DNA of 22,746 bases from a virus: IMG/VR virus record IMGVR_UViG_3300024431_000027, positions 1-22,746 of that record, one strand, 5' to 3'. The notes under the pieces are model-generated. The model did no database searches, had not been told where the DNA came from, and saw only the letters and a list, made by a program, of their open reading frames with translations. The translations under genes were made by a program, and so were the position numbers. This document shows, piece by piece, positions 1-22,746 of the stretch. The number at the start of each line of letters is the position of its first letter. Position 1 is the stretch's first letter.

Positions 1-2160
1 GACACCACCTTGAAGGGTAACGCCACCGACCGTATCGTCACCGTTGTCGAAGAAGAGTGTCACGCCGCTGCCTTCAGTAATCGTTTGCACACCGCTGCCC
101 GGTGCGATGATCTGGATCGTCGTGTAGAGAGGCCAGTTGACTTGACTGCCACTATCCTCCAACGTGATCTCATTGTTCGAGCCGTCAAAGTAGTGACCGA
201 TCCAATTGTCTGCTCGGTTGTCGGTCGTGTTGAAGTTGAAGTCATTGTTGACCTCGACGTTCGCGCCGAAGACGCCTCCCGATATGGCAACGACGAAATC
301 GTTATCGGCGTCGTCCGTGTAGCGGAAGCGGGTCGGTACGTCGTCGTCAATCCAAAGTTGACCGTTAGCGACGATGTTCGTGTCGGCTGTCGGCTGTTCC
401 ATCAGGTAGAGCGAGCCTTGAAGGCGCATCGCGTTGCTGAAGTTGACACGAGTCGGGGAGCCAAAGGCTGTCATCGTAATGCTGACCGTGCCGTTGTCTA
501 CCGCAACGCCACCGTGAACGATAAAGCTACCGACGGTATCGAAACGCAGTGTCAGCGTACCCGAACCACCACCGATGCCTTCGTTTCTCAGGAAGCAGTC
601 ATTTGCGAATGCCAGATCTTCGAACGTGAGTCGCATACCATCTTCAAGCACCAGACCGTCATCGTTCTCATCCATGCCACGAATGTTCAATTCGGTCATG
701 CCATTCAGATCGAATGTTGTCACAGTCCCGACGCGAATCTCGAAGACGCCTGTACCTTCAATTTGGAATGCTGTGCCAGTCCACCTGAAGTTTGAGTCAC
801 CTTCTACTGCACCCGGACCAGTGAAGACTGCAATCTCGTCATCAGCTGGAGTGCCATCAACGGTGAGGCCAAGAACATCGAGCGTAGCCTTCCGCATCAT
901 CCCCATGCTGTCGTCCCAGAATGCAAAGGTATCGACTGCCGTATCCACGCCTAATTCTAATGTGAGATTATCAACGTCCAACAACAGAGTGAGATCAGTC
1001 CCAAGATCTCCGCCTCCATCCAGACCACTGAGTGCAGGAGTGAGAACATCACGACCGACACCGAGGTTGTCCATCGCTCCGTCTGCTGTCGTTGCTCCCG
1101 TGCCGCCCTGACCAATGGTGATCGGGAACGCCACACTGGTCGATGATGTCGCGTTGATTACGTCAGTGGCATCGCAGTAAAGAATTACACTCTGCCCTTG
1201 CGGGACAAATATTCCTGCACCTGCAGCGGTAGCAATTTCAAGCGTAAATGCACCGCTCGTCTGATTGTCTGCCCAGTACTGTTGCGTCGTGTTCGGTACG
1301 ACGATGCGTCGGTTACCTGTCAATGCGCCTGTGAATCGATACGAAATTCGATTGAGATTTGCACCAGAGAGTACGAAGTCACCAGATCCCGGTACCGCAA
1401 GCGATACGAAATCGAACGCAATGGTCGAAGCGACAGTGAGTCCAATGGTGAAGAAGTCAGTACCGTCCGTGAAGATGAAACAGCTGCCATTCGGATCAAG
1501 GTTGAGACTTGCGCTACCATCGATGGTGCCAGACGGAGGCACAATGTTGAGCGTACCGCTGCCCGCGTTGTGCAACATGAAGAACCAGTTGTTGAAGACC
1601 ACTCCCGCTGACGGCAAATTACACGTGCCTGCGCCTGCGGTGTAAACCAAACACTTCGCTCGATCACCATTGACTACGGTGAAAGGTGTTACGGCTTTAA
1701 CATCTGAGTCAATTATCTGATCGAGCTGTGATCCCAGAGGCCGGAGACCATCACCAGCCAATGTCGAAGCAGATGCCTGAGTAGCTGCGTTGCCGCCTAA
1801 CTGGAACTGTGTCCATACACCTGCTTCGGTCGTATTGTCGGTTAGAACAATGACCCACTGCTCACCGGGCTGCACAGATTGAATCGTGCCACCTGTGCTA
1901 TCCCGCACAGTGAACTCATTGCCGCCAACATTGTTGAACGTCGCCTTATTGCCCTGCGAAGTGTTTCTGGCATCGGGCATGTCGATGTTGAGTCCACCAG
2001 CCGTGGTGTTGGTATCGATGATGTCTGCAACAACGTCGCCGCCCGTGATCTGTTGCTCGGTCGGCCACTGCAATACAACATCGATGGCTGTGGTGAGTGC
2101 GAGATAAGTGACCCTCGATGGGAAGATCAAATTGCCGCCAAATACGTCGGAGTAACCCAT
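1..2160 (-). CDS. Tail fibre / appendage protein, 5' 720 codons (partial, runs off the window)
   Basis: Reading the minus strand from the ATG at 2160 gives an open frame of 720 codons with no stop down to base 1, so the C-terminus lies outside the window. The start overlaps the stop of the upstream adaptor-like gene (TAATG). The protein is Gly/Thr/Asp/Asn-rich and beta-type. The N-terminus (MGYSDVFGGN) leads into a region with a GQWV(I/V)VLTDN segment near residue 100. A classic fibre signature, GQGGTGATTADGAMDNLGV, lies near residues 349-367. Around residues 583-625 there is a module with GQLWIDDD and YTDDADNDF that also occurs twice in the 936-residue fibre at 5064-7874. It is probably a virion fibre or receptor-binding appendage. 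The receptor is unknown, and the receptor-binding tip is probably in the missing part. Confidence 0.85.
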   Translation of the reverse strand, partial: MGYSDVFGGNLIFPSRVTYLALTTAIDVVLQWPTEQQITGGDVVADIIDTNTTAGGLNIDMPDARNTSQGNKATFNNVGGNEFTVRDSTGGTIQSVQPGEQWVIVLTDNTTEAGVWTQFQLGGNAATQASASTLAGDGLRPLGSQLDQIIDSDVKAVTPFTVVNGDRAKCLVYTAGAGTCNLPSAGVVFNNWFFMLHNAGSGTLNIVPPSGTIDGSASLNLDPNGSCFIFTDGTDFFTIGLTVASTIAFDFVSLAVPGSGDFVLSGANLNRISYRFTGALTGNRRIVVPNTTQQYWADNQTSGAFTLEIATAAGAGIFVPQGQSVILYCDATDVINATSSTSVAFPITIGQGGTGATTADGAMDNLGVGRDVLTPALSGLDGGGDLGTDLTLLLDVDNLTLELGVDTAVDTFAFWDDSMGMMRKATLDVLGLTVDGTPADDEIAVFTGPGAVEGDSNFRWTGTAFQIEGTGVFEIRVGTVTTFDLNGMTELNIRGMDENDDGLVLEDGMRLTFEDLAFANDCFLRNEGIGGGSGTLTLRFDTVGSFIVHGGVAVDNGTVSITMTAFGSPTRVNFSNAMRLQGSLYLMEQPTADTNIVANGQLWIDDDVPTRFRYTDDADNDFVVAISGGVFGANVEVNNDFNFNTTDNRADNWIGHYFDGSNNEITLEDSGSQVNWPLYTTIQIIAPGSGVQTITEGSGVTLFFDNGDDTVGGVTLQGGV
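286..414 (-). repeat. GQLWV-type fibre module, copy in the third fibre
   Basis: Coding-level module of about 40 residues with the pattern (L/I)(Y/F)(L/I)xEQxxx...D...GQ(L/I)(W/F)(V/I)(D/E)...(F/L)xxTDD. This copy contains MEQPTADTN, GQLWIDDD and RYTDDADNDF. Two other copies lie in the 936-residue fibre at 5895-6005 and 5514-5642. The similarity is at protein level; I do not claim DNA identity. Confidence 0.6.
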
Positions 2161-3669: not shown

Positions 3670-3900
3670 CTATATACCTCCATCACCCGATCCTGTGACC
3701 TTATTCACCAAGCGTCGGGTGGTGAGCGCTTGATAGTCTTTGAAGAACGCTACTGCCGCACCACCGAGGAGCGACACCCATGTCGCTGTCGATAACTGCG
3801 CAAACGTCAGATCTGGATTGTTGGTGAACAACGTCACGACGGTTGATGTAAATAGAATCAACGCTGCGATCAGTGCACCTACGAGTGTATTAACATTCAT
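3670..3900 (-). CDS. Small membrane protein, probable holin
   Basis: This 76-residue protein has two predicted membrane helices, about residues 5-26 (LVGALIAALILFTSTVVTLF) and 40-54 (TWVSLLGGAAVAFF). A short DLTFAQLS linker joins them, and a basic, Gly-rich C-terminus (TTRRLVNKVTGSGDGG) follows. Size, two helices and a charged tail match class II holins, which form the inner-membrane lesion that frees the endolysin. A GAGGAG SD stands eight bases before the ATG, and the start overlaps the endolysin stop (ATGA). It sits between the endolysin and the lipoprotein. The alternative is another small membrane protein of the lysis cassette, such as an antiholin. Confidence 0.72.
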   Translation of the reverse strand: MNVNTLVGALIAALILFTSTVVTLFTNNPDLTFAQLSTATWVSLLGGAAVAFFKDYQALTTRRLVNKVTGSGDGGI

Positions 3901-5063: not shown

Positions 5064-7874
5064 TTATGGTCCCGGTCCAATCTTCGTGACCTTGACATAC
5101 GATGCATCGTCTATAATTGTATTTGCTGCCGTAGCAATCTGTTGAGCGAACTCAAGGTCCCAAAGGTCCCCATTTCCTACATCCACTGTACCGATGATGT
5201 GAACTGTATGATTACCCGTTGCATTCTGAATTGCTCCTAATACCGTATGGACGTTGGTGTCTTGGAACGTGAATACACCTGTGGCAGCAATGCTCGTGAT
5301 CTGGAAGACTTCGTCAGAGAGAGTTCCTGCTCCCTGAGGATTCAACCGCAGTAAGAGATCAGGTGTTGCACTTGCCTGATTAACTTTTAAGAATATCTCG
5401 ATGTGGTAAACCGAATTAGCATCCAACTGGAAGCCACTCAACTGCGTAATTACGACAGGAGTTGTAGAGTTGTTGACCTGCTGCTGTCCACCGAAGTTGT
5501 TGAACCATTGAACAGTGCTGACCCGCATTTCAGTGCCGCTATCATCGGTGAACATCAGTGTGTTGGGAACAAGACTCTCAACCCAGATCTGCCCATCCCC
5601 TGCTATGTCGGCCTCAGATGCTGCCTGTTCTCCAATAAAGATAACCGGACACTCAACTCTCGCGAAGCTGCTCTGGCTAATCTGAAAGACACCATCACCG
5701 AAGTCTCCACCAGCGATACCAAATTGAAATATAGGACCGAGGTTCTGAATGAACACGCTACTGTCATCTGCGTTGTTCCGCAGATCCAGTTCGCAGCTTG
5801 GACCGAAGTCAACACCCTGAACATCTGTAAATTCCCAATGACCAGAGATGGTTTGATCAAGCGTAGGATCGAAGACACCTGCTGACAGATTAAAATCAAC
5901 TCCAACCTCGGTGATGTAATGAAGCGCGTCGTCTGCTGAGTCAACGAAGAGCTGACCGAAGCCTGTGTCATCTGATTCTTGGGCTGCTTGCTCAGCGAGG
6001 AACAGCGTTCCATTCTGGATGCGAACACCCTCATTAGAAGTTGCCAGCCGACCGGTTGCGCTTGTGCCAGCGTAAAGAGTTACGCCACCATTCGCGGCAT
6101 CACCGGAGAAGTGCGCTCGTATTCTAGTGCCACCTCCTGTCCCAACGTTGATGATGACATGACGACCAGCAATGTGATTCCGAAGAATCATGTCGGTGAA
6201 GAATTCGTTGCCGATACTGAATCGGGTTGTTCCGTTTGCGAGTTGCCATTCAAGCTCGCGACCTTCGGCGTCTATATTGCCGACGCTGCGAATGGCACTG
6301 GTACCAGAACCTTCCGCAATGACAGCGACGTTGGCAGAACCATCGACTAACTGACTGGCTGATCCTCCACCTGCAGCAAGACTGGCAAGCGAGAACGAGA
6401 AACGACACAGTCTTGTGGTGTCAAAGATAGTTCCGTTGGCGATCAAGCTTACTGGGAAATTCCACCATCCTGTTTGATCAACCGGAGGACCAGTCAATTC
6501 ATATTGCGCCCAGTTATCCTGACTGTTCGGTTGAACGATGAATAATTTATCACCAGAGACTAATTCCGCACCCCAGAAGAGATCAAATTCAGTTTGCAAA
6601 GCGATACTTTGATCAGCGACTGCGATTTCTGTAACCAATGCAGGATTGACATTGTTCATCCTGAAGTCTTGACTTCCCGGATCAGAACCCGTGTCGGTGT
6701 TGGTATCAAAGTTGAACTCTATTTCCTTCGCACCTTTATCACTGGCAGTTCTAACTCTAGAATTACCACCGGCACCCGTCACACCATTCGCAACAAGTAC
6801 TCCGCCTGCAGAGACTGACTGGGAGAAAATGACAATCTCCTGAGTAGCACCATGACGCAGCCAGAACGAAGCAGCCGGATCAAAGAAGTACGCGAATGCC
6901 TCTGCTCCACCTGCGTCAGTCGCACTGAACAGTAATTCTCCACCGCGCATGAGGTTCTTTAAATCAAGCGTATTACTGGCATCGAAACCAAACGATCCAA
7001 TGACGTTGACGTTTTGGAGATCGCGTAACTCTAGGTCAGCCGTAATCGCTTCGGTCGTCGGCGGAGTTGCCGTATTGATATCGCCCAAGATGCCTAGCGA
7101 TGTAGCGAATGGATTGCCAGCACCAATATCACCTATGGTCAGAACACGTTCAAGACCTGCACCTGTTAGCGTGTTGTTGACTGACAAACCACCTGCGGCA
7201 GGAGCTAACGTTAAGGCAACCTGATCGACTCCGTTGCGGACGATGTCAACTTCAACCCCAGACTGCAGTGTCGTGTTCTGCGAGCCACCGGACTGACCGA
7301 ATGATGCGAGACCATCGTCCCGGAGGCGCACGAAATCGTTACCTGCAACTGAGACGGTATATTGGAATTGCCCTCCGCCCAAGAGAACATTGTCAATGAA
7401 ACAATCACCATTCGCATTGCGTAATGCGATGCCGCCGAGTGCAACGTAGGTGAAGAGATTTAAAAGCTCTCCGGCAATGTCATCCCAAAGCAGACCTCCG
7501 CCAGTGTCCTCCCAATCCGTGCCATCGATGCTATATATAAAGCTGCCGGTTTGAGCTTGTTCTATATCAACATCACTGAGATTGGCCCATGCAAGTGCCG
7601 CTGAGACGCTAATCGTTATCGGATTACCAGCACCGGCATCAGCGATGCTGATGAATTGTCCTTCAGTCAGTATCCGTTCGTTCGGCAAAGACGCATTCGC
7701 ATTCACCGTGATGAAAGTCGCATCAAGCCCAGAGATACTCCCTACCAGCTCCTCTGCCGTAACCTTGCGGCTAACCTCGATACCAGCCTCGAATGTCTGC
7801 ACCTCAAAGAGGGTGTTCGGGAGATCGAGAGGCAACGATGCTAGTGGTAGCGCTGAAATTTTTATGTTAGCCAT
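5064..7874 (-). CDS. Large modular tail fibre / receptor-binding protein (936 aa)
   Basis: The start overlaps the upstream stop (TAATG), with GAGG seven bases before the ATG. The N-terminus (MANIKISALPLASLPLDLPN) is of the kind that attaches fibres to the virion. Repetitive beta-rich sections follow, with two copies of an AGAGNPI/F segment (residues 80-86 and 250-256) and an ALAWANLSDVD segment. Residues 396-500 form a module (SGDKLFIVQPNSQDNW, then TGWWNFPVSL) that also occurs in the 647-residue fibre. Residues 624-660 and 745-787 are two copies of a GQ(L/I)(W/F)V-TDD module also present in the third fibre. Residues 788-936 form a different C-terminal domain beginning VQWFNNFGGQQQVNNSTTPV, the best candidate for a trimeric tip. 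It is a host-recognition appendage by analogy; the receptor is unknown. Confidence 0.87.
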   Translation of the reverse strand: MANIKISALPLASLPLDLPNTLFEVQTFEAGIEVSRKVTAEELVGSISGLDATFITVNANASLPNERILTEGQFISIADAGAGNPITISVSAALAWANLSDVDIEQAQTGSFIYSIDGTDWEDTGGGLLWDDIAGELLNLFTYVALGGIALRNANGDCFIDNVLLGGGQFQYTVSVAGNDFVRLRDDGLASFGQSGGSQNTTLQSGVEVDIVRNGVDQVALTLAPAAGGLSVNNTLTGAGLERVLTIGDIGAGNPFATSLGILGDINTATPPTTEAITADLELRDLQNVNVIGSFGFDASNTLDLKNLMRGGELLFSATDAGGAEAFAYFFDPAASFWLRHGATQEIVIFSQSVSAGGVLVANGVTGAGGNSRVRTASDKGAKEIEFNFDTNTDTGSDPGSQDFRMNNVNPALVTEIAVADQSIALQTEFDLFWGAELVSGDKLFIVQPNSQDNWAQYELTGPPVDQTGWWNFPVSLIANGTIFDTTRLCRFSFSLASLAAGGGSASQLVDGSANVAVIAEGSGTSAIRSVGNIDAEGRELEWQLANGTTRFSIGNEFFTDMILRNHIAGRHVIINVGTGGGTRIRAHFSGDAANGGVTLYAGTSATGRLATSNEGVRIQNGTLFLAEQAAQESDDTGFGQLFVDSADDALHYITEVGVDFNLSAGVFDPTLDQTISGHWEFTDVQGVDFGPSCELDLRNNADDSSVFIQNLGPIFQFGIAGGDFGDGVFQISQSSFARVECPVIFIGEQAASEADIAGDGQIWVESLVPNTLMFTDDSGTEMRVSTVQWFNNFGGQQQVNNSTTPVVITQLSGFQLDANSVYHIEIFLKVNQASATPDLLLRLNPQGAGTLSDEVFQITSIAATGVFTFQDTNVHTVLGAIQNATGNHTVHIIGTVDVGNGDLWDLEFAQQIATAANTIIDDASYVKVTKIGPGP
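5514..5642 (-). repeat. GQ(L/I)WV-TDD fibre module, second copy in the 936-aa fibre
   Basis: Codes for residues 745-787 and includes FIGEQAASEADIAGDGQIWV and LMFTDDSGTEMRVS. It aligns by eye with the copies at 5895-6005 and 286-414. The C-terminal domain of the fibre starts immediately after it. Confidence 0.6.
5895..6005 (-). repeat. GQ(L/I)WV-TDD fibre module, first copy in the 936-aa fibre
   Basis: Codes for residues 624-660 and includes FLAEQAAQESDDTGFGQLFV followed by DSADDALHYITEVG. This copy has drifted: Phe replaces Trp, and the TDD element is weak. Its spacing relative to the other two copies is kept. Confidence 0.55.
6375..6689 (-). repeat. WW-type fibre module shared with the 647-aa fibre, copy in the 936-aa fibre
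   Basis: Codes for residues 396-500. The common pattern in both fibres is DPGSxxFRxxN, then a D-rich stretch, GDxL(F/Y)I(V/Q)Q, a (D/K)xxxxAxW/Y core, GPxPVDxxGWW, xPVxL(I/V), and a closing hydrophobic strand. The sister copy is at 12670-12969. Confidence 0.6.
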
Positions 7875-11391: not shown

Positions 11392-13335
11392 CTATCCTAG
11401 CGCCCCAATGGTTTGCAAGTCCGCAATGAGCGCGGCCAAAACGTTGTTGTTGTTTAGCGTTGTTGCCGATGCACTGGCGAGCAATGTACGATCCTCCACA
11501 ATTGCTGCGTTGCGCGTGAACGCTGCAGATTGATCGAAGTTCCAGCTGATACCATCCGACCTAAGCCGCAAGGTAGTATCCATCCAGAAGTCGCCGTTTT
11601 GCAATACGCCGGGTACGCCGGTCGTACCTTTGAATCGTATGCCAGCGTCGCCGATTTGAAACGTGTCGTCCAGCGAGTTTGTGCCGGGTCCAAACTGACA
11701 GGAGTTGTCACCGCTGGCAATAATGTCGCCGCTGTTCGCGTCGCCGATGGCGAACGCCCCGATCCCGGACGCAATGATGTCGCCACTTGCTTGTGCCCGT
11801 CCGTGAGCAAATGAACCTTGCCCAGATGCAAGGATATCTTTGTTATTGGCGCGGCCTTGTGCAAATGCGCCCGGTTGACTTGCCGAAATCGTACCACCAC
11901 TGACAACGTGACCCTGCGCAAATGATCCTGTGCCGGTTGACTCAATCGTGCCGGTGGCACCGGAAAGACCATTGGCGATTGCACCCTGCGCGAATGCTCC
12001 CGCGCCAGTTGCTCGCATCACAGTAAAGTTGTTGGCGAGGTTGGCGTTGAAAAAGCCCTGAACGAATGAACCCTGCCCGGATGACGTCACGGTCACGGTG
12101 CCGTAGCCGTAGGAATAACCCGACAGGAACGAACCAATGCCACTGTTGAGCAACGTGTGATTGTTTGCAGTAGCGCCATATCCCGTGTACGAATACGCGC
12201 AGGTGAATGTTGCAGGCCCGGTTGCGTTGATAAGTGCATTACCGGCACCGTAGGAAAATGCCGAACCCATACACACCGAACCACCACCTACATTCAGGAT
12301 CCGGGCCGCGCCGGTTGAATAGCTGAACACGTTGCCCATAACGGCGACTGCCTTATATGAGCCGCCTGCAAGAGAAAGTTCCGTGACGCCGGTATCCAAC
12401 CTGACCTGATTGCCAGCCATAATGCCGGTCGAAGCCGTGCCAGCGAATGTGCGGATCGCACCTTGCGGCGATGTGACGCCGCCTGTGTTGTTAGATTCAC
12501 CGACGAATACGCCCAAGCGTCCGGACACGCGAATCCACCGCTCTGCATCGGTGCCAAGCTCGCGCTGTTGGGCAGTTAATGGGCGAACAGCCTGAGTTAC
12601 CAGTTCGCCTGTTAGTGGATCATTCGAAGTATCGAGGCGAAGGTAAGTCAAATCCATGTCGCCGCCGATTTGCAGAACAATAATGCAGCGGGCATTGTTG
12701 TCCAGAACATCACCATCGCTTACAAGTTGAACCGAAATGGTCCACCAGCCGCCCTCGTCAACCGGGGCAGGACCGTCAACATTCCAGACAGCGAATTTTG
12801 ATGCATCGTCTGATTGCTGAATGTAAAGCCGATCACCGATTTGAATGAGGCCAAGCAAGGTTGATATGTCTACGCCGTCATTGTTGATGTCGTCGATAAA
12901 GATTTCCGTGACGCTGGCGTGTACCGCGTTGTCATACCGGAAGCGACCGCTGCCGGGGTCAGCCTTCACGATAGACGTACTGAACCGGTACTCCGAGGAT
13001 AGCAACCCCCCACTATTAGGAGGTTCCGAGTAGGCTCCAGTTTCGTCGAGGAAATTAGACGCAACACCCGTAACATCGAGTGTCACTCCATTGACGGATA
13101 CGCCTGTGATTGCTGCATCGAGATCGACAATGGGGTTGACAGGATCAGCAGCATTGACGGTGATGTTGACACCACCGACAACGGAATCTACCTGTCCACC
13201 TCCGCCTCCACCAGCTGCCCAGTCGAAGTCGAAGTCCTCGTTACTGAGTTTTGTGAGGACCTCGCCCGTCAACCCCCCATCGGGGATCTCGATGAGCATG
13301 ACACCATTGCCCGAGACGATGGCACTGCCGACCAT
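11392..13335 (-). CDS. Tail fibre with YadA-like glycine-rich repeats (647 aa)
   Basis: The N-terminal part (MVGSAIVSGNGVMLIEIPDG) passes through a Gly run (AAGGGGGGQ, 40-48) to a module at 123-222 shared with the 936-residue fibre (GDRLYIQQ, DEGGWWTISV). A capsule-like linker (TGELVTQAVRPLTAQQRELG) follows. Residues about 328-560 hold roughly ten units of 18-25 residues built on G(S/A)FxxG, for example GSFAQG, GAFAQG, GSFAHG and GAFAIG. These are reminiscent of the left-handed beta-roll head of YadA-type adhesins. The C-terminal part contains GDAGIRFKGTTGVPG, GDFWMD and a helical end. It is probably a trimeric receptor-binding appendage. It is in frame with the upstream coiled-coil gene across a TAG six bases before this ATG; GGGG is the only SD-like element. 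Confidence 0.83.
   Translation of the reverse strand: MVGSAIVSGNGVMLIEIPDGGLTGEVLTKLSNEDFDFDWAAGGGGGGQVDSVVGGVNITVNAADPVNPIVDLDAAITGVSVNGVTLDVTGVASNFLDETGAYSEPPNSGGLLSSEYRFSTSIVKADPGSGRFRYDNAVHASVTEIFIDDINNDGVDISTLLGLIQIGDRLYIQQSDDASKFAVWNVDGPAPVDEGGWWTISVQLVSDGDVLDNNARCIIVLQIGGDMDLTYLRLDTSNDPLTGELVTQAVRPLTAQQRELGTDAERWIRVSGRLGVFVGESNNTGGVTSPQGAIRTFAGTASTGIMAGNQVRLDTGVTELSLAGGSYKAVAVMGNVFSYSTGAARILNVGGGSVCMGSAFSYGAGNALINATGPATFTCAYSYTGYGATANNHTLLNSGIGSFLSGYSYGYGTVTVTSSGQGSFVQGFFNANLANNFTVMRATGAGAFAQGAIANGLSGATGTIESTGTGSFAQGHVVSGGTISASQPGAFAQGRANNKDILASGQGSFAHGRAQASGDIIASGIGAFAIGDANSGDIIASGDNSCQFGPGTNSLDDTFQIGDAGIRFKGTTGVPGVLQNGDFWMDTTLRLRSDGISWNFDQSAAFTRNAAIVEDRTLLASASATTLNNNNVLAALIADLQTIGALG
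11656..12354 (-). repeat. YadA-like G(S/A)FxxG repeat tract
   Basis: Codes for residues about 328-560 of the 647-residue fibre. Core hexads include GSVCMG (352), GSFLSG (401), GSFVQG (422), GAFAQG (446), GSFAQG (470), GAFAQG (489), GSFAHG (507) and GAFAIG (526), spaced 18-24 residues apart. The C-terminal units are the most regular and the N-terminal ones more drifted. The pattern predicts stacked beta-roll coils. Confidence 0.7.
12670..12969 (-). repeat. WW-type fibre module shared with the 936-aa fibre, copy in the 647-aa fibre
   Basis: Codes for residues 123-222 of the 647-residue fibre. It contains KADPGSGRFRYDN, IQIGDRLYIQQ, VDGPAPVDEGGWWTISVQLV and a closing RCIIVLQI strand, matching in order the module at 6375-6689. 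Confidence 0.6.
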
Positions 13336-14251: not shown

Positions 14252-14974
14252 CTATCGCTCCTGAATGACGACTATACGATCCATGGTAAGAGTCTTCGCA
14301 GCAGCCTCACCGGCACGAACTGCGAACGAAACCGTTAGCAATTCATCATTCGGGAAACTGGCATCAGGTGTTGAGAAGCTACCGACGGTACCGTTAAGCG
14401 CACCGTACAGCCGACCATCAGAGCCTTGACCGTCGTAGTAAGCCTGCAGCCTGAACGCTGTGGCATCCACAATGGTCCCGACATCACCAGAGACCTCAAC
14501 ACTGTTCTTCTCAGAGACCAGCGTCACGAGACCTGTAGCTTCTGCCTTGCGGAAGCTAAGACCGTCCGAGTGACCAGCAAGCAGTGTCGTATCGGTGATC
14601 GCGAAACCGATCAGAATCTCAGACAGTAGTACCTCACTGAGAGTTGCCAAAATCTCGACGAAGAATCGCTTGTCAGGATCAAACAGGATGTTCTCTACCG
14701 AGATACCTGCAGCGATCTTCTGAAGCTGGACCTCATCGTCATCTGCACCTGCGGTGAGCAGGGTGATGATGCCACCGTCACCTTCAACGACAGCGACCGT
14801 GTTGGCACCCTGTACGTCAGTCTCGGTCCACTGACCGGCGACGAACGTGTAGAAATCTTCCTCGTAAACATGCGAGCCTAAGTGACTCGGAAATTGCAAG
14901 GCATTAAAAATGCTTCCGACGTCTTCGTTGTTGACGCCGTTATTGAAGCGAGTTCGTAAATTATCAATAAACAT
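14252..14974 (-). CDS. Beta-rich structural protein, lectin-like fold possible (240 aa)
   Basis: I start the gene at the ATG at 14974, which has GGAG six bases upstream. A TTG at 14986 in the same frame would include that SD and is rejected. The 240-residue protein begins MFIDNLRTRFNNGVNNEDVG. Residues 40-240 read as a beta-sandwich of the concanavalin/laminin-G type: DFYTFVAGQWTETDVQG, GGIITLLTAGADDDEVQLQ, FFVEILATLSEV, and a last strand TLTMDRIVVIQER. No catalytic residues stand out. It is the first gene after the terminator that follows the capsid gene. I infer a virion surface or minor capsid protein; a glycan-binding role is only a possibility. Confidence 0.62.
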   Translation of the reverse strand: MFIDNLRTRFNNGVNNEDVGSIFNALQFPSHLGSHVYEEDFYTFVAGQWTETDVQGANTVAVVEGDGGIITLLTAGADDDEVQLQKIAAGISVENILFDPDKRFFVEILATLSEVLLSEILIGFAITDTTLLAGHSDGLSFRKAEATGLVTLVSEKNSVEVSGDVGTIVDATAFRLQAYYDGQGSDGRLYGALNGTVGSFSTPDASFPNDELLTVSFAVRAGEAAAKTLTMDRIVVIQER

Positions 14975-15010
14975 TTTGTTCTCCAAAAACCATGGTCTCC
15001 CGTTTACATC

Positions 15011-15073: not shown

Positions 15074-16003
15074 TTAGAGTCCCGGTGTGCCGTAAACCGC
15101 ACGCGGATCCGTCCAGTCCGGAATGTAACGTTCCGTGGACTTGTACCGCATGGAATCGGTCTCGAAATCACCTTCCATCGACTTCTCCAGCCCGCGACGT
15201 TTCATCAGCTGCAAGCCGCGAGGTGCATCCGTCTGGACCCACCATGCAGTTGTGCTCGTGATACGCGACAGATTGGCCTGACCTTGAGACAGGAGTCCCA
15301 TCGACAAGATCGGGTTGATGTCGTTGTTCGCTGTGCCAGCGCGCAAGACACTCTTCAGCAGAACTTCTGCTTGGAATATCTGGCTCGGACCAGTGACAAT
15401 CTTGAGAGGCTGCAAGCGGATCCGCTTACCGTTATTGTCCACGGCATTACGGATCTGGATGAGCATCTGCTCAAGCGACGTTTGCGATAAAGCTGCAGCA
15501 GTCGTCAACAGGTTCGAGAAAACGCCACCAGCAGATCCACCCGGTGCTATCGGGTGATTGGTAACGTTCAGCGCTACACCGTCACCACCAACGAACGCGC
15601 CATTAAAGGCACGGTTGAGGATGTTGGCGCAGAGCGTCTCTTTCGTTTCGATCATCGACTGAGCGAGATGCTCAGAGTAGATCCGACCGATACGAATGTG
15701 GTCGCCGTCTTCGACCAAGACTTTGGTAAGCGCGAACGCCAGACCGAAGACCTTGTAGACGTAACGCTGAATGAACAGCACTCCGCCTGCGTCGAATGTC
15801 ACCGGGGTGCCGTCAGGCATTTCCGGTGCAGCATTGAATCCGAAGAGGACCGGCTCTTCATGGTACGAACGGGGGGTACCCTTTCGATCCGTGAAAACAC
15901 CTTTCCATTCATCGGCGCGTTGGTTATAGATTCCGTCAAAAGTCTCGTTAAGGATCGGCTCAACGATTGATCGGAAGTCGGTACTTCTCATTGGAACTGC
16001 CAT
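15074..16003 (-). CDS. Major capsid protein (HK97 fold, Mu gpT-like type)
   Basis: This 309-residue protein is of normal length for a compact HK97-fold capsid subunit without a delta domain. The N-terminal arm reads STDFRSIVEPILNETFDGIY, the pattern of gpT-like capsid proteins. It is followed by an E-loop-like region (YHEEPVLFGF, VTFDAGGVLFIQRYVYKVFG), a spine helix (IRIGRIYSEHLAQSMIETKE) and a C-terminal P/A-domain with KIVTGPSQIFQAEVLLKS and ERYIPDWTDPRAVYG. It follows the portal, scaffold and decoration-like genes in canonical order. TGGAG lies nine bases before the ATG, a hairpin precedes that SD, and an intrinsic terminator follows the stop. These flanks fit a transcript that is highly expressed and processed separately. 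I see no protease gene in the cluster, consistent with scaffold use without cleavage, but the gene could lie elsewhere. Confidence 0.88.
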   Translation of the reverse strand: MAVPMRSTDFRSIVEPILNETFDGIYNQRADEWKGVFTDRKGTPRSYHEEPVLFGFNAAPEMPDGTPVTFDAGGVLFIQRYVYKVFGLAFALTKVLVEDGDHIRIGRIYSEHLAQSMIETKETLCANILNRAFNGAFVGGDGVALNVTNHPIAPGGSAGGVFSNLLTTAAALSQTSLEQMLIQIRNAVDNNGKRIRLQPLKIVTGPSQIFQAEVLLKSVLRAGTANNDINPILSMGLLSQGQANLSRITSTTAWWVQTDAPRGLQLMKRRGLEKSMEGDFETDSMRYKSTERYIPDWTDPRAVYGTPGL

Positions 16004-18231: not shown

Positions 18232-18681
18232 CTACAGATAAGCGATTACGTCCATGGGATTACAGGTGATCTGACCAATCAGATCCAAATCGTTGTACAA
18301 GACAAAACATGCCTGATCAACGCCAGTCTTCTGGCGCACGGTGTTGGGAACATCGACCATCCATTTGTCGCCGCCATACTTCGGCACGCGTACATAGGTC
18401 CCTTCCTCACACCAATTGCCTTCCGGCCAAACCTCCAGAGTGTCGCGATTCTTAAAAGCCGCTGGTCCAAGCGCGATGACTTTAGCCACTTGAGTGTTCC
18501 AGAACTCAGTGTCTTGGGTTTCATCCGGAACGATGATCCCACCTTTCGTGACCGCACGCGGTGAACGCTTCTGAACTAAAACTCTTGAGCCAAACGGTAC
18601 CAGACCGGGGTCGGTCTCCGGAAAGGCTTGATCAATCGAATCGTAATCCAAACTTATTCGTGCGCTTGCTAACATAGTCAC
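18232..18681 (-). CDS. GroES-like co-chaperonin (phage Cpn10)
   Basis: Residues about 28-105 follow the Cpn10 core: LVPFGSRVLVQKRSPRAVTK, a mobile-loop-like GGIIVPDETQ (47-56), the strand AKVIALGPAAF (66-76), and EEGTYVRVPKYGGDKWMVD (92-110), which matches the GDxVxxxKYGGxE region. The IIV in the loop is the expected GroEL-contact tripeptide. At 147-149 residues it is longer than GroES (97) and T4 gp31 (111), with extra N-terminal (about 27) and C-terminal (about 38) parts. A partner of host GroEL for capsid folding fits its place between the portal and scaffold genes. The start is either GTG at 18681, five bases from AGGA, or ATG at 18675, eleven bases away. Confidence 0.82.
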   Translation of the reverse strand: MTMLASARISLDYDSIDQAFPETDPGLVPFGSRVLVQKRSPRAVTKGGIIVPDETQDTEFWNTQVAKVIALGPAAFKNRDTLEVWPEGNWCEEGTYVRVPKYGGDKWMVDVPNTVRQKTGVDQACFVLYNDLDLIGQITCNPMDVIAYL

Positions 18682-19177: not shown

Positions 19178-19657
19178 TCAAGTATCCGTGCGTGGTCTGG
19201 GGTTCGTAGAACCTTTTCCGGACGTGATCTTCGACCGATCAGTTACTGCCTTGACGCCTGCGATTTGAAGTGCCGTGAGATTATCCTCGGCATTGATGTC
19301 CTCGCTGGAAGTGATTTTCATTTCAGTACGCTCGTCCTCAGCACGTTCACGCTCTACTAGCTCTTCGAGTCGAGCAGCGTACTCGTTCGCTTTTTGGGCG
19401 TCTTCACGAGCTGAGTCTAGAGCCTTCTGTCGCTCCTCTGCCTCAAGCTCCATAAACGTTTTCTCGCGGTCGTGATCACGCTGCTCGCGCTTGTCCACGA
19501 GGGTTAATTGAGTACGTTCGCGCTCGCGTGAATCTCGAGCCTGATCCGCCTCGCGTTCTTGTTCGATAGCAGCCATCGCATTTGGATCGACTGGCGGCTG
19601 TGGCTCTTCAGGCTCAAATTGCTGCATGGCTTCTTGCAGTTGCTCAACGACTGGCAT
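19178..19657 (-). CDS. Charged coiled-coil protein, probable detached C-terminus of the portal (159 aa)
   Basis: From the ATG at 19657 (a TTG directly before it is possible) the frame encodes MPVVEQLQEAMQQFEPEEPQ, a Pro-rich hinge (QPPVDPNAMAA), and then about 85 residues of strongly charged helix (READQARDSRERERTQLTLV; KTFMELEAEERQKALDSARE; RLEELVERERAEDERTE). It ends with ITSSEDINAEDNLTALQIAG. It is in the portal frame, separated by TAG and three codons (Ala, Gly, Leu), and I find no convincing SD. In P22-like and environmental portals, as I know them, the C-terminus carries a similar Gln/charged helical tail. It is therefore either a coupled separate subunit or the end of the portal made by amber read-through. 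A stand-alone scaffold-like role is the alternative. Confidence 0.7.
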   Translation of the reverse strand: MPVVEQLQEAMQQFEPEEPQPPVDPNAMAAIEQEREADQARDSRERERTQLTLVDKREQRDHDREKTFMELEAEERQKALDSAREDAQKANEYAARLEELVERERAEDERTEMKITSSEDINAEDNLTALQIAGVKAVTDRSKITSGKGSTNPRPRTDT

Positions 19658-19680
19658 CAAACCAGCCTAAACTTGGTTCA
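19655..19680 (-). other. In-frame amber junction between portal and coiled-coil tail
   Basis: On the minus strand the portal ends in ATG AAC CAA GTT TAG, followed in the same frame by GCT GGT TTG ATG. Only the TAG interrupts an otherwise continuous frame of about 878 codons. A G follows the amber, and there is no strong SD before the ATG. Confidence 0.8.
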
Positions 19681-21811
19681 TCGCAGGAACCACATCTGCC
19701 GACTGGTACGCGAGAGTTTTATCCATCTCTCTGCGCACGTCAGGATCGTGAAGTCGCATCATCTGCGTAAAGTGTTCGTCGTCCATTCCGCTGGCTGCTT
19801 TTAACAAGTCAACATTGTAAGAGACGTAATAGAGCGCCACGTGTTCGATGATGTGTCCCATCAGCATGGGGATAAATCGAGGCGCAATTAACGGATTCAT
19901 TCCGAGTGCGGGTGACGTCGCGTAATCAAGATGCACCTGCAAGTGAGCTAAGTGATCTTGCGCCGGGAACGCTGCCACAGGTCTGCCCATGGTCATCGCT
20001 GCATTTTCGTTGACGGCATTCGTCTCCTCCGGCGTGTCGTCCGGGAGTAACAGCTCGTCTGGATTCGGTATCTTCGTTCGCTCAAGGATGCGTTTCTCAA
20101 CTTCCTTGATGTTGTAAACCTCTGGCATTTGCGCAGCGCGGTCTGCAACAATTTGTAACTGAGCCATGCGTTGAACATCCGAGAAGATCTCTGGATCTGC
20201 GACTGGCAGGACGTCATACGGTGGATCGAAATCTTTCCGGTAAGCAAGTAGCTCTCCGTGCTCGTCTTTCAGCTCTTCCTCGTCGAGGTACATCCGATTG
20301 ATGCGGCATAAGATTTCGATAACCTTGGACATCGCTCCGAACATGCGCAGGTGGATAGCGCTGAAGACCGTCATGCCTTCTTCGATAAGCGCTAACGTGG
20401 TGCCTACAGGCATATTCGTATTTTGCTCTCCTAATTTTTCGAAGGTTGTCTGAACGACACCACGCCCCAACTTATCGCAGATGCTTAGCAATTCGACCAA
20501 GACATTCGACGGTGGGTTAAACGGCACCGGCATGATCAGTTTGCGGATGTCGTCGCCAGCTACACCACCTTCGATCTCGGTGATGGCTGCAACACGCAGC
20601 TCCTTGCTCTGTCCACTGAAATTCGCCCCTTTGAGTCGAATGAGTGTGGGCAGGTTATTCATGTGAGCAGAGTCAAGGAGAGCGCGGAGTGCGCCAGTAG
20701 CTGCTCCGGACAGGGAACCAATCATCTGACCAAGGCCAACTGATCCGGCACCACGCCACGGAATGAACGGGAACTCTACAGCCCAGTCCAATTTCAGCTT
20801 GTTCTTATCGTCCTCTTCCCAGTTGCGATTAATCGCGCAGATTTTCTGGGAGGGACCGTGAATGGTGATGCGGTAAGGCGCGTAACCGTGTTCGTCTTTC
20901 TCGCCGTCTGCGTTTTCAAACTCATCGCACCAACAGTTAACTTCGTAGATGTTGTGCAATCCGTCTTCGTTGTACGCTTGCAGATTTTCTTTACCCTCTA
21001 CGGCATCGGTCGCTTTTTGCGGGCCGGATTCTTCCTCTACGATTCCGGCTTTAATCATTTCAGGACCGAGGTCGGAATACATGCCGCCGCTCACACGCTG
21101 CTTATATTCGAACTCGGTGATGTGATCAACGAAGGTGACACGGTCGGATGTATAAAAGTTTGATGCCGCGTAGGGAATGTAAACGTCATCACTGGGCCAG
21201 AATTGCGGCACGGGACGTTTCTTTTGCTCATCCCAGACGAGACGCAGATACTGCGACCCACCCAGCGGCGTTTGTGACAAGAGTTGTTCCAGCTCTGTGC
21301 GGAAGTCGGGCATCTGCTTCAGGAACTGCCAGTTCATGTAGTTCTTGATGCGGTCAGCTTTCTTGAAGCGATCTATCTCAGGGTTGTCACCGGGGATGTA
21401 CGATTTCACAGGACCGTTCGGTGGCATCAGCTCCTTGATCGCTCGTGATTGGAAATCCACCACCGCTTCAGTGAGCATGGGATGCACCGCTTTGGATGCA
21501 CCTTCGAAGTCTGCGCCTCCGGGAGTCTCTTTGCCCAGCCCTGTGCGCTTGATTGCTTCCTCGTAATCTTTCTCTCGTTTCTCACGCGCTTTTTTATCGC
21601 GTTCGATATCTTCCAACAGTCGGGTTGCGATCTTGGTTTTTACACCTTCTTCAAAATCGTCCGCGATGTTGTCGAACCATTCACGGTTGGGACCTTTACC
21701 GTCGTCTTCCCCGACTGTAACGATAGCTCCTCCGTCATCGGTGTCAACGACGTCACCTCTCGATTCTGTGAATTTTTCGACGGAACCGACTTGGTCTTGC
21801 GGTGTTGCCAT
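19667..21811 (-). CDS. Portal protein, P22-like long type (714 aa)
   Basis: The portal forms the dodecameric DNA gate at the head vertex. An acidic flexible N-terminus (15-45) precedes a charged helix (IATRLLEDIERDKKAREKRE, 61-80). The conserved-looking entry GASKAVHPMLTEAVVDFQSR (104-123) then leads to AIKELMPPNGPV and to helices with MNWQFLKQMPDF. Later elements include IPWRGAGSVGLGQMIGSLSG, ALRALLDSAHMNNLPTLIRL and LGRGVVQTTFEKLGEQNTNM. The last part is helical (LGMNPLIAPRFIPMLMGHII; DPDVRREMDKTLAYQSADVV) and stops at an amber. The length fits P22-like portals without their C-terminal barrel. It starts by TGATG overlap with the Cys-rich gene and follows the terminase, as usual. Confidence 0.85.
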   Translation of the reverse strand: MATPQDQVGSVEKFTESRGDVVDTDDGGAIVTVGEDDGKGPNREWFDNIADDFEEGVKTKIATRLLEDIERDKKAREKREKDYEEAIKRTGLGKETPGGADFEGASKAVHPMLTEAVVDFQSRAIKELMPPNGPVKSYIPGDNPEIDRFKKADRIKNYMNWQFLKQMPDFRTELEQLLSQTPLGGSQYLRLVWDEQKKRPVPQFWPSDDVYIPYAASNFYTSDRVTFVDHITEFEYKQRVSGGMYSDLGPEMIKAGIVEEESGPQKATDAVEGKENLQAYNEDGLHNIYEVNCWCDEFENADGEKDEHGYAPYRITIHGPSQKICAINRNWEEDDKNKLKLDWAVEFPFIPWRGAGSVGLGQMIGSLSGAATGALRALLDSAHMNNLPTLIRLKGANFSGQSKELRVAAITEIEGGVAGDDIRKLIMPVPFNPPSNVLVELLSICDKLGRGVVQTTFEKLGEQNTNMPVGTTLALIEEGMTVFSAIHLRMFGAMSKVIEILCRINRMYLDEEELKDEHGELLAYRKDFDPPYDVLPVADPEIFSDVQRMAQLQIVADRAAQMPEVYNIKEVEKRILERTKIPNPDELLLPDDTPEETNAVNENAAMTMGRPVAAFPAQDHLAHLQVHLDYATSPALGMNPLIAPRFIPMLMGHIIEHVALYYVSYNVDLLKAASGMDDEHFTQMMRLHDPDVRREMDKTLAYQSADVVPAMNQV

Positions 21812-22173
21812 CAGTGAGTGCTCCCGTATTTCTTATGCATGAGATCAGCAGCGTGCTGAACAATATTAGCGAACGCACATACGGGACACCCAGCGTTCTC
21901 TGCTACAACTCGGTCAGGACCGAAAATCTCTAACGCACCCATGTTGAGCATGTTGCACGCTTCCCAGCAGGGATCCAACTCCCCAGATGCAAACTTGGCG
22001 TTGAGTTCGTCGGCTGTTGCAGCAATTTGATCATCGAGGCCGCGATCTTTCAGGGCAAACATCAACTCAGTCCAGTGGCCCTCGCACCACTTGATGCGCT
22101 TCAGATCACTGCCCTCGGGGAGATCCATGGTCGGGATATCTATCAGGATGGCTTCATCCATAGGGATTTTCAC
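21811..22173 (-). CDS. Cys-rich small protein between terminase and portal (120 aa)
   Basis: A 120-residue soluble protein overlapping the terminase end by 20 bases. The start is GTG at 22173 or ATG at 22161; neither has a strong SD. Metal-ligand pairs are visible: C30-x2-H33 (CEGHW), C69-x3-C73 (CWEAC) and C96-x2-C99 (CPVC) followed by His107. A small zinc-binding domain is thus plausible. It lacks a helix-turn-helix and a membrane segment. A terminase partner or portal-associated factor is suggested by position only. I do not recognise the family. Confidence 0.65.
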   Translation of the reverse strand: MKIPMDEAILIDIPTMDLPEGSDLKRIKWCEGHWTELMFALKDRGLDDQIAATADELNAKFASGELDPCWEACNMLNMGALEIFGPDRVVAENAGCPVCAFANIVQHAADLMHKKYGSTH

Positions 22174-22746
22174 GCTTCTTCAACCGTCGCTCCGCAATAT
22201 CACGTGCACGTGCACGCTCCTTGGATTCGACGGAGTCTACCACGGTAAACGGACCAAAATATTTATCCATGAGCAGACGCAAGGCTTGCGTAGCTGTGTC
22301 GAGTAGATCGTCGCGCTCTGTGGAGCCGGGACCGACGTAAGAACAAATTTGTGAGATGAGTGGATCGGCCCATGATTTAAAATTCCCCGGATTGATCTCC
22401 GACTCAACAGCCCAGACGCGACTGGCTGCAAACATTGGAGAGACATAGTGCAGTCGCGTTAACTTGTCTTCATTACCCGGATTGTAGCCATGAGTCAAGA
22501 TGTTCTCTTCCGCAAGCTGCTGACGGATTGATATTCCGGACGCTTTTTCTTCGATCAAAATAATGTCGGCCAGACGCCCCTGATGCTTTGCGCGCTGTGA
22601 TTTCGCCTTGATCATCGGCTTAATCATCGGCTCGTCAGCGTCACCGTAGGTGTACAACATTTCTTTCTTGATACGACGCACCAAGTTAGGGAAGCCCAGC
22701 CAGTCTTCCCACGCGTCGAGCAGGATCACCTGTGGAAGGGGTGGCT
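22154..22746 (-). CDS. Large terminase subunit, C-terminal nuclease part (partial)
   Basis: The frame is open to the window edge (it reads PPLPQ before VILLDAWEDW), so the ATPase domain and start lie outside. The piece matches the RNase H-like nuclease end of phage large terminases: VILLDAWEDWLGFPNLVRRI near the edge, then ADIILIEEKASGISIRQQL, the usual (L/I)IE-K-SG motif with a central Glu. STERDDLLDTATQALRLLMD follows, whose DD/D residues fit the last metal-binding motif. It cuts concatemeric DNA during packaging into the prohead through the portal. A basic tail (RARDIAERRLKKRENPYG) ends the protein and overlaps the Cys-rich gene. Confidence 0.88.
   Translation of the reverse strand, partial: PPLPQVILLDAWEDWLGFPNLVRRIKKEMLYTYGDADEPMIKPMIKAKSQRAKHQGRLADIILIEEKASGISIRQQLAEENILTHGYNPGNEDKLTRLHYVSPMFAASRVWAVESEINPGNFKSWADPLISQICSYVGPGSTERDDLLDTATQALRLLMDKYFGPFTVVDSVESKERARARDIAERRLKKRENPYG

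What the first reader, a model, noticed from the sequence alone, without database searches (positions are those of the whole stretch)
19178..21811. Portal gene split by a single in-frame amber codon from its apparent coiled-coil tail
The portal frame stops at TAG (19669-19667), and the same frame then runs another 163 codons, reading AGLMPVVEQLQ and a Gln/Pro hinge into a charged coiled coil. The junction reads naturally as one helix (VVPAMNQV-x-AGLMPVVEQL), and no good SD restarts translation. This could be programmed amber read-through that puts the tail on a fraction of portal subunits, a coupled two-protein portal, or a recent nonsense mutation suppressed by the host. A mixed portal ring would be unusual.
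Basis: partly seen in the sequence, partly recalled or inferred. Interest (0 to 1): 0.6.

Follow-up and report, generated by a model that had tools for sequence, protein, structure and literature searches.

The report
Lone stop mutation in phage portal
In this fragment of an environmental phage genome, the gene for the portal (the ring through which DNA enters the head) carries one stop codon that none of 46 related sequences has, so it is almost certainly a private mutation or a sequence error rather than a programmed way of making two portal forms.

Summary
A 714-codon portal frame (21811..19667, minus strand) ends at TAG (19669-19667). The same frame then stays open for 162 more codons to a TGA at 19178. 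The interpretation as a programmed two-form or two-protein portal is not supported. In all 46 related records that span the junction (IMG/VR contigs, phage records including Caulobacter phage RW, and one MAG), the two parts are one uninterrupted protein. At the stop position they have Leu (18), Phe (21) or another residue (7), never a stop. The exact junction sequence occurs nowhere else in IMG/VR. TAG is not recoded in this phage: other window genes end at TAG where their relatives end, and no other window gene has an internal stop. The tail shows the same strength of purifying selection in the window as among intact relatives, so the stop is recent, or an error, or tolerated. There is no tRNA in the window and no conserved element at the junction. 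The protein is an ordinary SU10/P22-like portal, and its C-terminal helices are probably the barrel part. Best explanation: a private nonsense substitution or base error in one contig. Which of the two cannot be told without reads. Interest is low.

The parts
19667..21811 (-). portal protein, N-terminal 714 codons (portal core), ending in the private TAG
   Evidence: PHROG 1216 portal E 1.7e-8; a relative's model matches the SU10 portal 7z44, Foldseek E 2.3e-15, VIA Z 27.1
19667..19669 (-). in-frame TAG, found only in this record; relatives have Leu or Phe in most cases
   Evidence: exact junction 23-mer has 0 matches in IMG/VR
19178..19666 (-). C-terminal helical, coiled-coil-like part of the same portal gene, cut off by the TAG
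   Evidence: fused to the core in 46 of 46 spanning relatives; helices 741-786 and 789-857 in the model of a relative
19655..19657 (-). ATG that could allow weak re-initiation after the TAG; an internal Met in several intact relatives
   Evidence: sequence, relatives
22154..22744 (-). large terminase subunit, C-terminal part (5' end beyond the window)
   Evidence: PHROG 38; 86-92% identical in relatives
21811..22173 (-). small gene between terminase and portal, conserved in relatives
18232..18681 (-). GroES-like gene that ends at TAG; the TAG is kept in all relatives compared, so TAG is a true stop
   Evidence: PHROG 3188

Best explanation
This is one ordinary phage portal gene of the large SU10/P22-like type, carrying a single private nonsense codon (TAG) at codon 715, where relatives have a sense codon. 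It is either a real recent mutation in the sampled phage population or a base error in the metagenome assembly. If real, it would make a portal without its C-terminal 162 residues (the helical part that probably points into the head). The tail would then be lost, or made at a low level by host suppression or weak re-initiation. Shown: the fused state in relatives, the absence of recoding, and no decay of the tail. Inferred: that the stop is recent or an error, and what a truncated portal would do.
For: All 46 spanning relatives, 34-91% identical, are fused with no internal stop; position 715 is Leu in 18, Phe in 21, other in 7. Isolated Caulobacter phage RW and Roseobacter phage CRP-901, and the environmental record MW202545, carry single portal genes of 821-828 codons. 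The exact junction is absent from IMG/VR. Tail dN/dS between the window and its four nearest relatives is 0.12-0.20, against 0.10-0.19 among those relatives, so the tail evolved as part of a working protein until recently. Window genes ending at TAG stop where relatives stop, for example the GroES gene, and no other window gene has an internal stop in its relatives' frame. No tRNA lies in the window.
Against: Neither a consensus base error nor a real mutation is shown directly, since no reads are available. Lack of tail decay would also fit continued expression of the tail.
Confidence: 0.92

Rival explanations
1. Programmed amber read-through puts the C-terminal part on only a fraction of portal subunits, giving a mixed ring.
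For: The frame stays open and conserved after the TAG. A 7-bp hairpin starts two bases into the sequence at the TAG.
Against: No relative has any stop there. The hairpin is absent or different in relatives, and the 103-nt context folds no better than shuffles (z 0.10). The z of -2.5 for the 31-nt piece was obtained on a piece chosen after seeing the fold.
Confidence: 0.02
2. The portal is split into two coupled proteins, with the tail started at ATG 19657-19655 after termination at the TAG.
For: A weak AGG lies eight bases before this ATG, in the usual range for initiation. The tail is not decayed.
Against: No relative is split. The ATG is simply an internal Met in several fused relatives. No full Shine-Dalgarno sequence is present.
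Confidence: 0.03
3. The stop is real and tolerated because the phage grows in an amber-suppressing or TAG-recoding host, or carries a suppressor tRNA outside this fragment.
For: The window is only a 22.7-kb fragment, so a tRNA elsewhere in the genome is not excluded.
Against: The window has seven other genes ending in TAG; where relatives allow the test most end at or near the same residue. Only one gene has an in-frame TAG. No tRNA was found in the window, and none with an amber anticodon in the stretches of relatives scanned.
Confidence: 0.03

Closest known systems
Portal of phage SU10 (Pfam PF23899 SU10_portal; PDB 7z44)
   Same: Best structural match of the full-length relative's model (Foldseek E 2.3e-15; VIA Z 27.1). 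Three of 42 family members hit the Pfam model, best E 2.6e-12. [quoted passage not shown]
   Different: About 11-14% sequence identity. The family here has a longer C-terminal part, and this record has a TAG before it.
Portal gp1 of phage P22
   Same: A large portal with a C-terminal helical barrel (PMC4992974). Its core matches the model at VIA Z about 18-19.
   Different: P22 gp1 is 725 residues. Its last 50 residues are dispensable (dif1 mutant, PMC4992974), whereas here 162 residues would be lost.
Portals of Caulobacter phages RW, KcrB, RLK and GB2A
   Same: 48.6% identical over 97% of the 714-residue core, in similar gene order next to terminase and a GroES-like gene.
   Different: The portal of phage RW is one 828-codon gene without a stop at the junction; the other three give the same match in the search.

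Membership tests
Caudoviricetes portal protein (PHROG 1216 / SU10-like) | profile match to a portal family | tested here: met
   window core matches PHROG 1216, E 1.7e-8; 25 of 42 family members match it
Caudoviricetes portal protein (PHROG 1216 / SU10-like) | portal fold | tested here: met
   model of a relative with a 92-93% identical core matches many portals, best SU10 7z44 Z 27.1; mean pLDDT is only 69.7
Caudoviricetes portal protein (PHROG 1216 / SU10-like) | gene closely downstream of the large terminase gene | tested here: met
   TerL at 22154-22744, a small gene, then the portal
Programmed stop-codon read-through gene | stop conserved among relatives with coding sequence after it | tested here: not met
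   0 of 46 relatives have a stop
Programmed stop-codon read-through gene | both short and extended proteins made | not testable with these tools
   needs mass spectrometry
TAG-recoding phage (genetic code 15) | many in-frame TAG codons and TAG avoided as terminator | tested here: not met
   one in-frame TAG only; seven other window genes end at TAG
TAG-recoding phage (genetic code 15) | suppressor tRNA in the phage genome | tested here: inconclusive
   none in the window, but the genome is incomplete

The most novel reading that the evidence does not exclude
A young phage lineage fixed an amber codon in its portal and still makes the C-terminal part at a low level by read-through or re-initiation, giving portal rings of mixed or shortened subunits.
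Probability: 0.04. Interest if true: 0.55.

Novelty: not a real feature. Interest (0 to 1): 0.07.

Why it matters
The comparison settles that this portal family is a single fused protein of about 800-880 residues, so the split should not be carried into annotations as two genes or as read-through. If the stop proved real and fixed, it would be a natural test of whether the portal's inner C-terminal helices are dispensable in this phage group.

Tried and rejected
Exact junction scan of IMG/VR: no match. tRNA search in the window: none; in relatives, one odd tRNA-like call with anticodon ttca in L011, not an amber suppressor. RNA structure after the stop: not unusual over 103 nt; the short hairpin is not shared by relatives. 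First structure model from 14 sequences was too poor to use (mean pLDDT 39); a 42-sequence alignment gave a usable model. Sequence search of the PDB with profiles gave no portal. Pfam on the window protein gave only sub-threshold hits. Private-change counts on the window branch were too few in the tail (2 synonymous, 3 non-synonymous) to date the stop. Papers on read-through in portals: nothing relevant.

Full report
Observation. On the minus strand a 714-codon frame runs 21811..19670 and stops at TAG 19669-19667; the same frame then runs 162 sense codons to TGA 19180-19178. A run this long has a chance of about 0.002 under a first-order Markov model, and relatives show it is coding. The record is a 22,746-base virus fragment that equals the window, and no tRNA lies in it.

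Identity. The first part is a portal protein: PHROG 1216, E 1.7e-8, and relatives are annotated as portal or head-to-tail connecting protein. It lies downstream of the large terminase and a small conserved gene. An AlphaFold2 model of a relative whose core is 92-93% identical (L026, 42-row alignment, mean pLDDT 69.7) matches solved portals, best SU10 (Foldseek E 2.3e-15; VIA Z 27.1 over 458 residues with a large rmsd of 31.7 A, so the domains match but their arrangement in the model does not). The cut-off tail corresponds to helices 717-730, 741-786 and 789-857 of that model, the last two after a Gln/Pro-rich hinge (parts at low confidence). By analogy with the SU10 and P22 portals, which have a C-terminal barrel domain, this is probably the barrel; that is inference, since the structural matches mostly cover model residues 49-543.

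The key test. Relatives were collected from IMG/VR, GTDB genomes and phage records. Where a relative's alignment crosses codon 715, 46 records, the two parts are one open frame without any stop; the residue there is Leu in 18, Phe in 21 and something else in 7 (some records are near-duplicates). Four phage records carry one annotated gene of 798-828 codons (in the most distant, DSL-LC04, the alignment stops before the junction). The exact window junction occurs in no other IMG/VR contig. That shows the tail belongs to the portal, and it removes the case for a conserved split or conserved read-through.

No recoding. Seven other genes of the window end at TAG. The GroES-like gene's TAG is kept in all relatives compared, and gene 3670-3900 ends at TAG in four of five relatives. 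No gene of the window has an internal stop in its relatives' frame apart from the portal, although a few fast-evolving genes have only partial matches.

Age. Tail dN/dS between the window and its four nearest relatives is 0.12-0.20, against 0.10-0.19 among those relatives. So the tail shows no relaxation, and the stop is recent, or not real, or the tail is still made. Private changes in the window's tail are too few to date it.

Mechanism if real. The portal would lack its C-terminal 162 residues. P22 tolerates loss of the last 50 residues of gp1 (dif1, PMC4992974), so a shortened portal is not automatically lethal. A weak AGG and ATG 19657-19655 could allow some re-initiation. A 7-bp hairpin just after the TAG is not shared with relatives and was singled out after the fact.

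Verdict. A private nonsense change or base error in one metagenome contig of an otherwise ordinary portal gene. Reads would separate the two; none are available here.

Noticed in passing
window 15074-16003 (-): Capsid-like protein that is 98-99.7% identical in amino acids to relatives (DNA 88-97%), while neighbouring genes are much less alike: unusually strong conservation or recent exchange of this gene.
   Followed up: partly
window 14252-14986 (-): Next to the near-identical capsid gene, this TTG-started gene is only about 24-35% identical to relatives at the same place.
   Followed up: no
window 5064-7874, 11392-13335 and 1-2160 (-): Long genes with patchy, modular matches to relatives, and short segments that match at more than one place; they look like tail-fibre or adhesin genes.
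   Followed up: no
window 18232-18681 (-): Phage-encoded GroES-like co-chaperonin, conserved near the portal also in Caulobacter phage RW and other relatives.
   Followed up: no
L011 1073-1146 (+): tRNA-like gene with an odd four-base anticodon call 'ttca' in a relative's contig.
   Followed up: no
L091 (LJVB01000034.1): A contig of an Acidithiobacillales MAG holds a close relative of this phage region, a possible hint at the host or a mis-binned phage contig.
   Followed up: no
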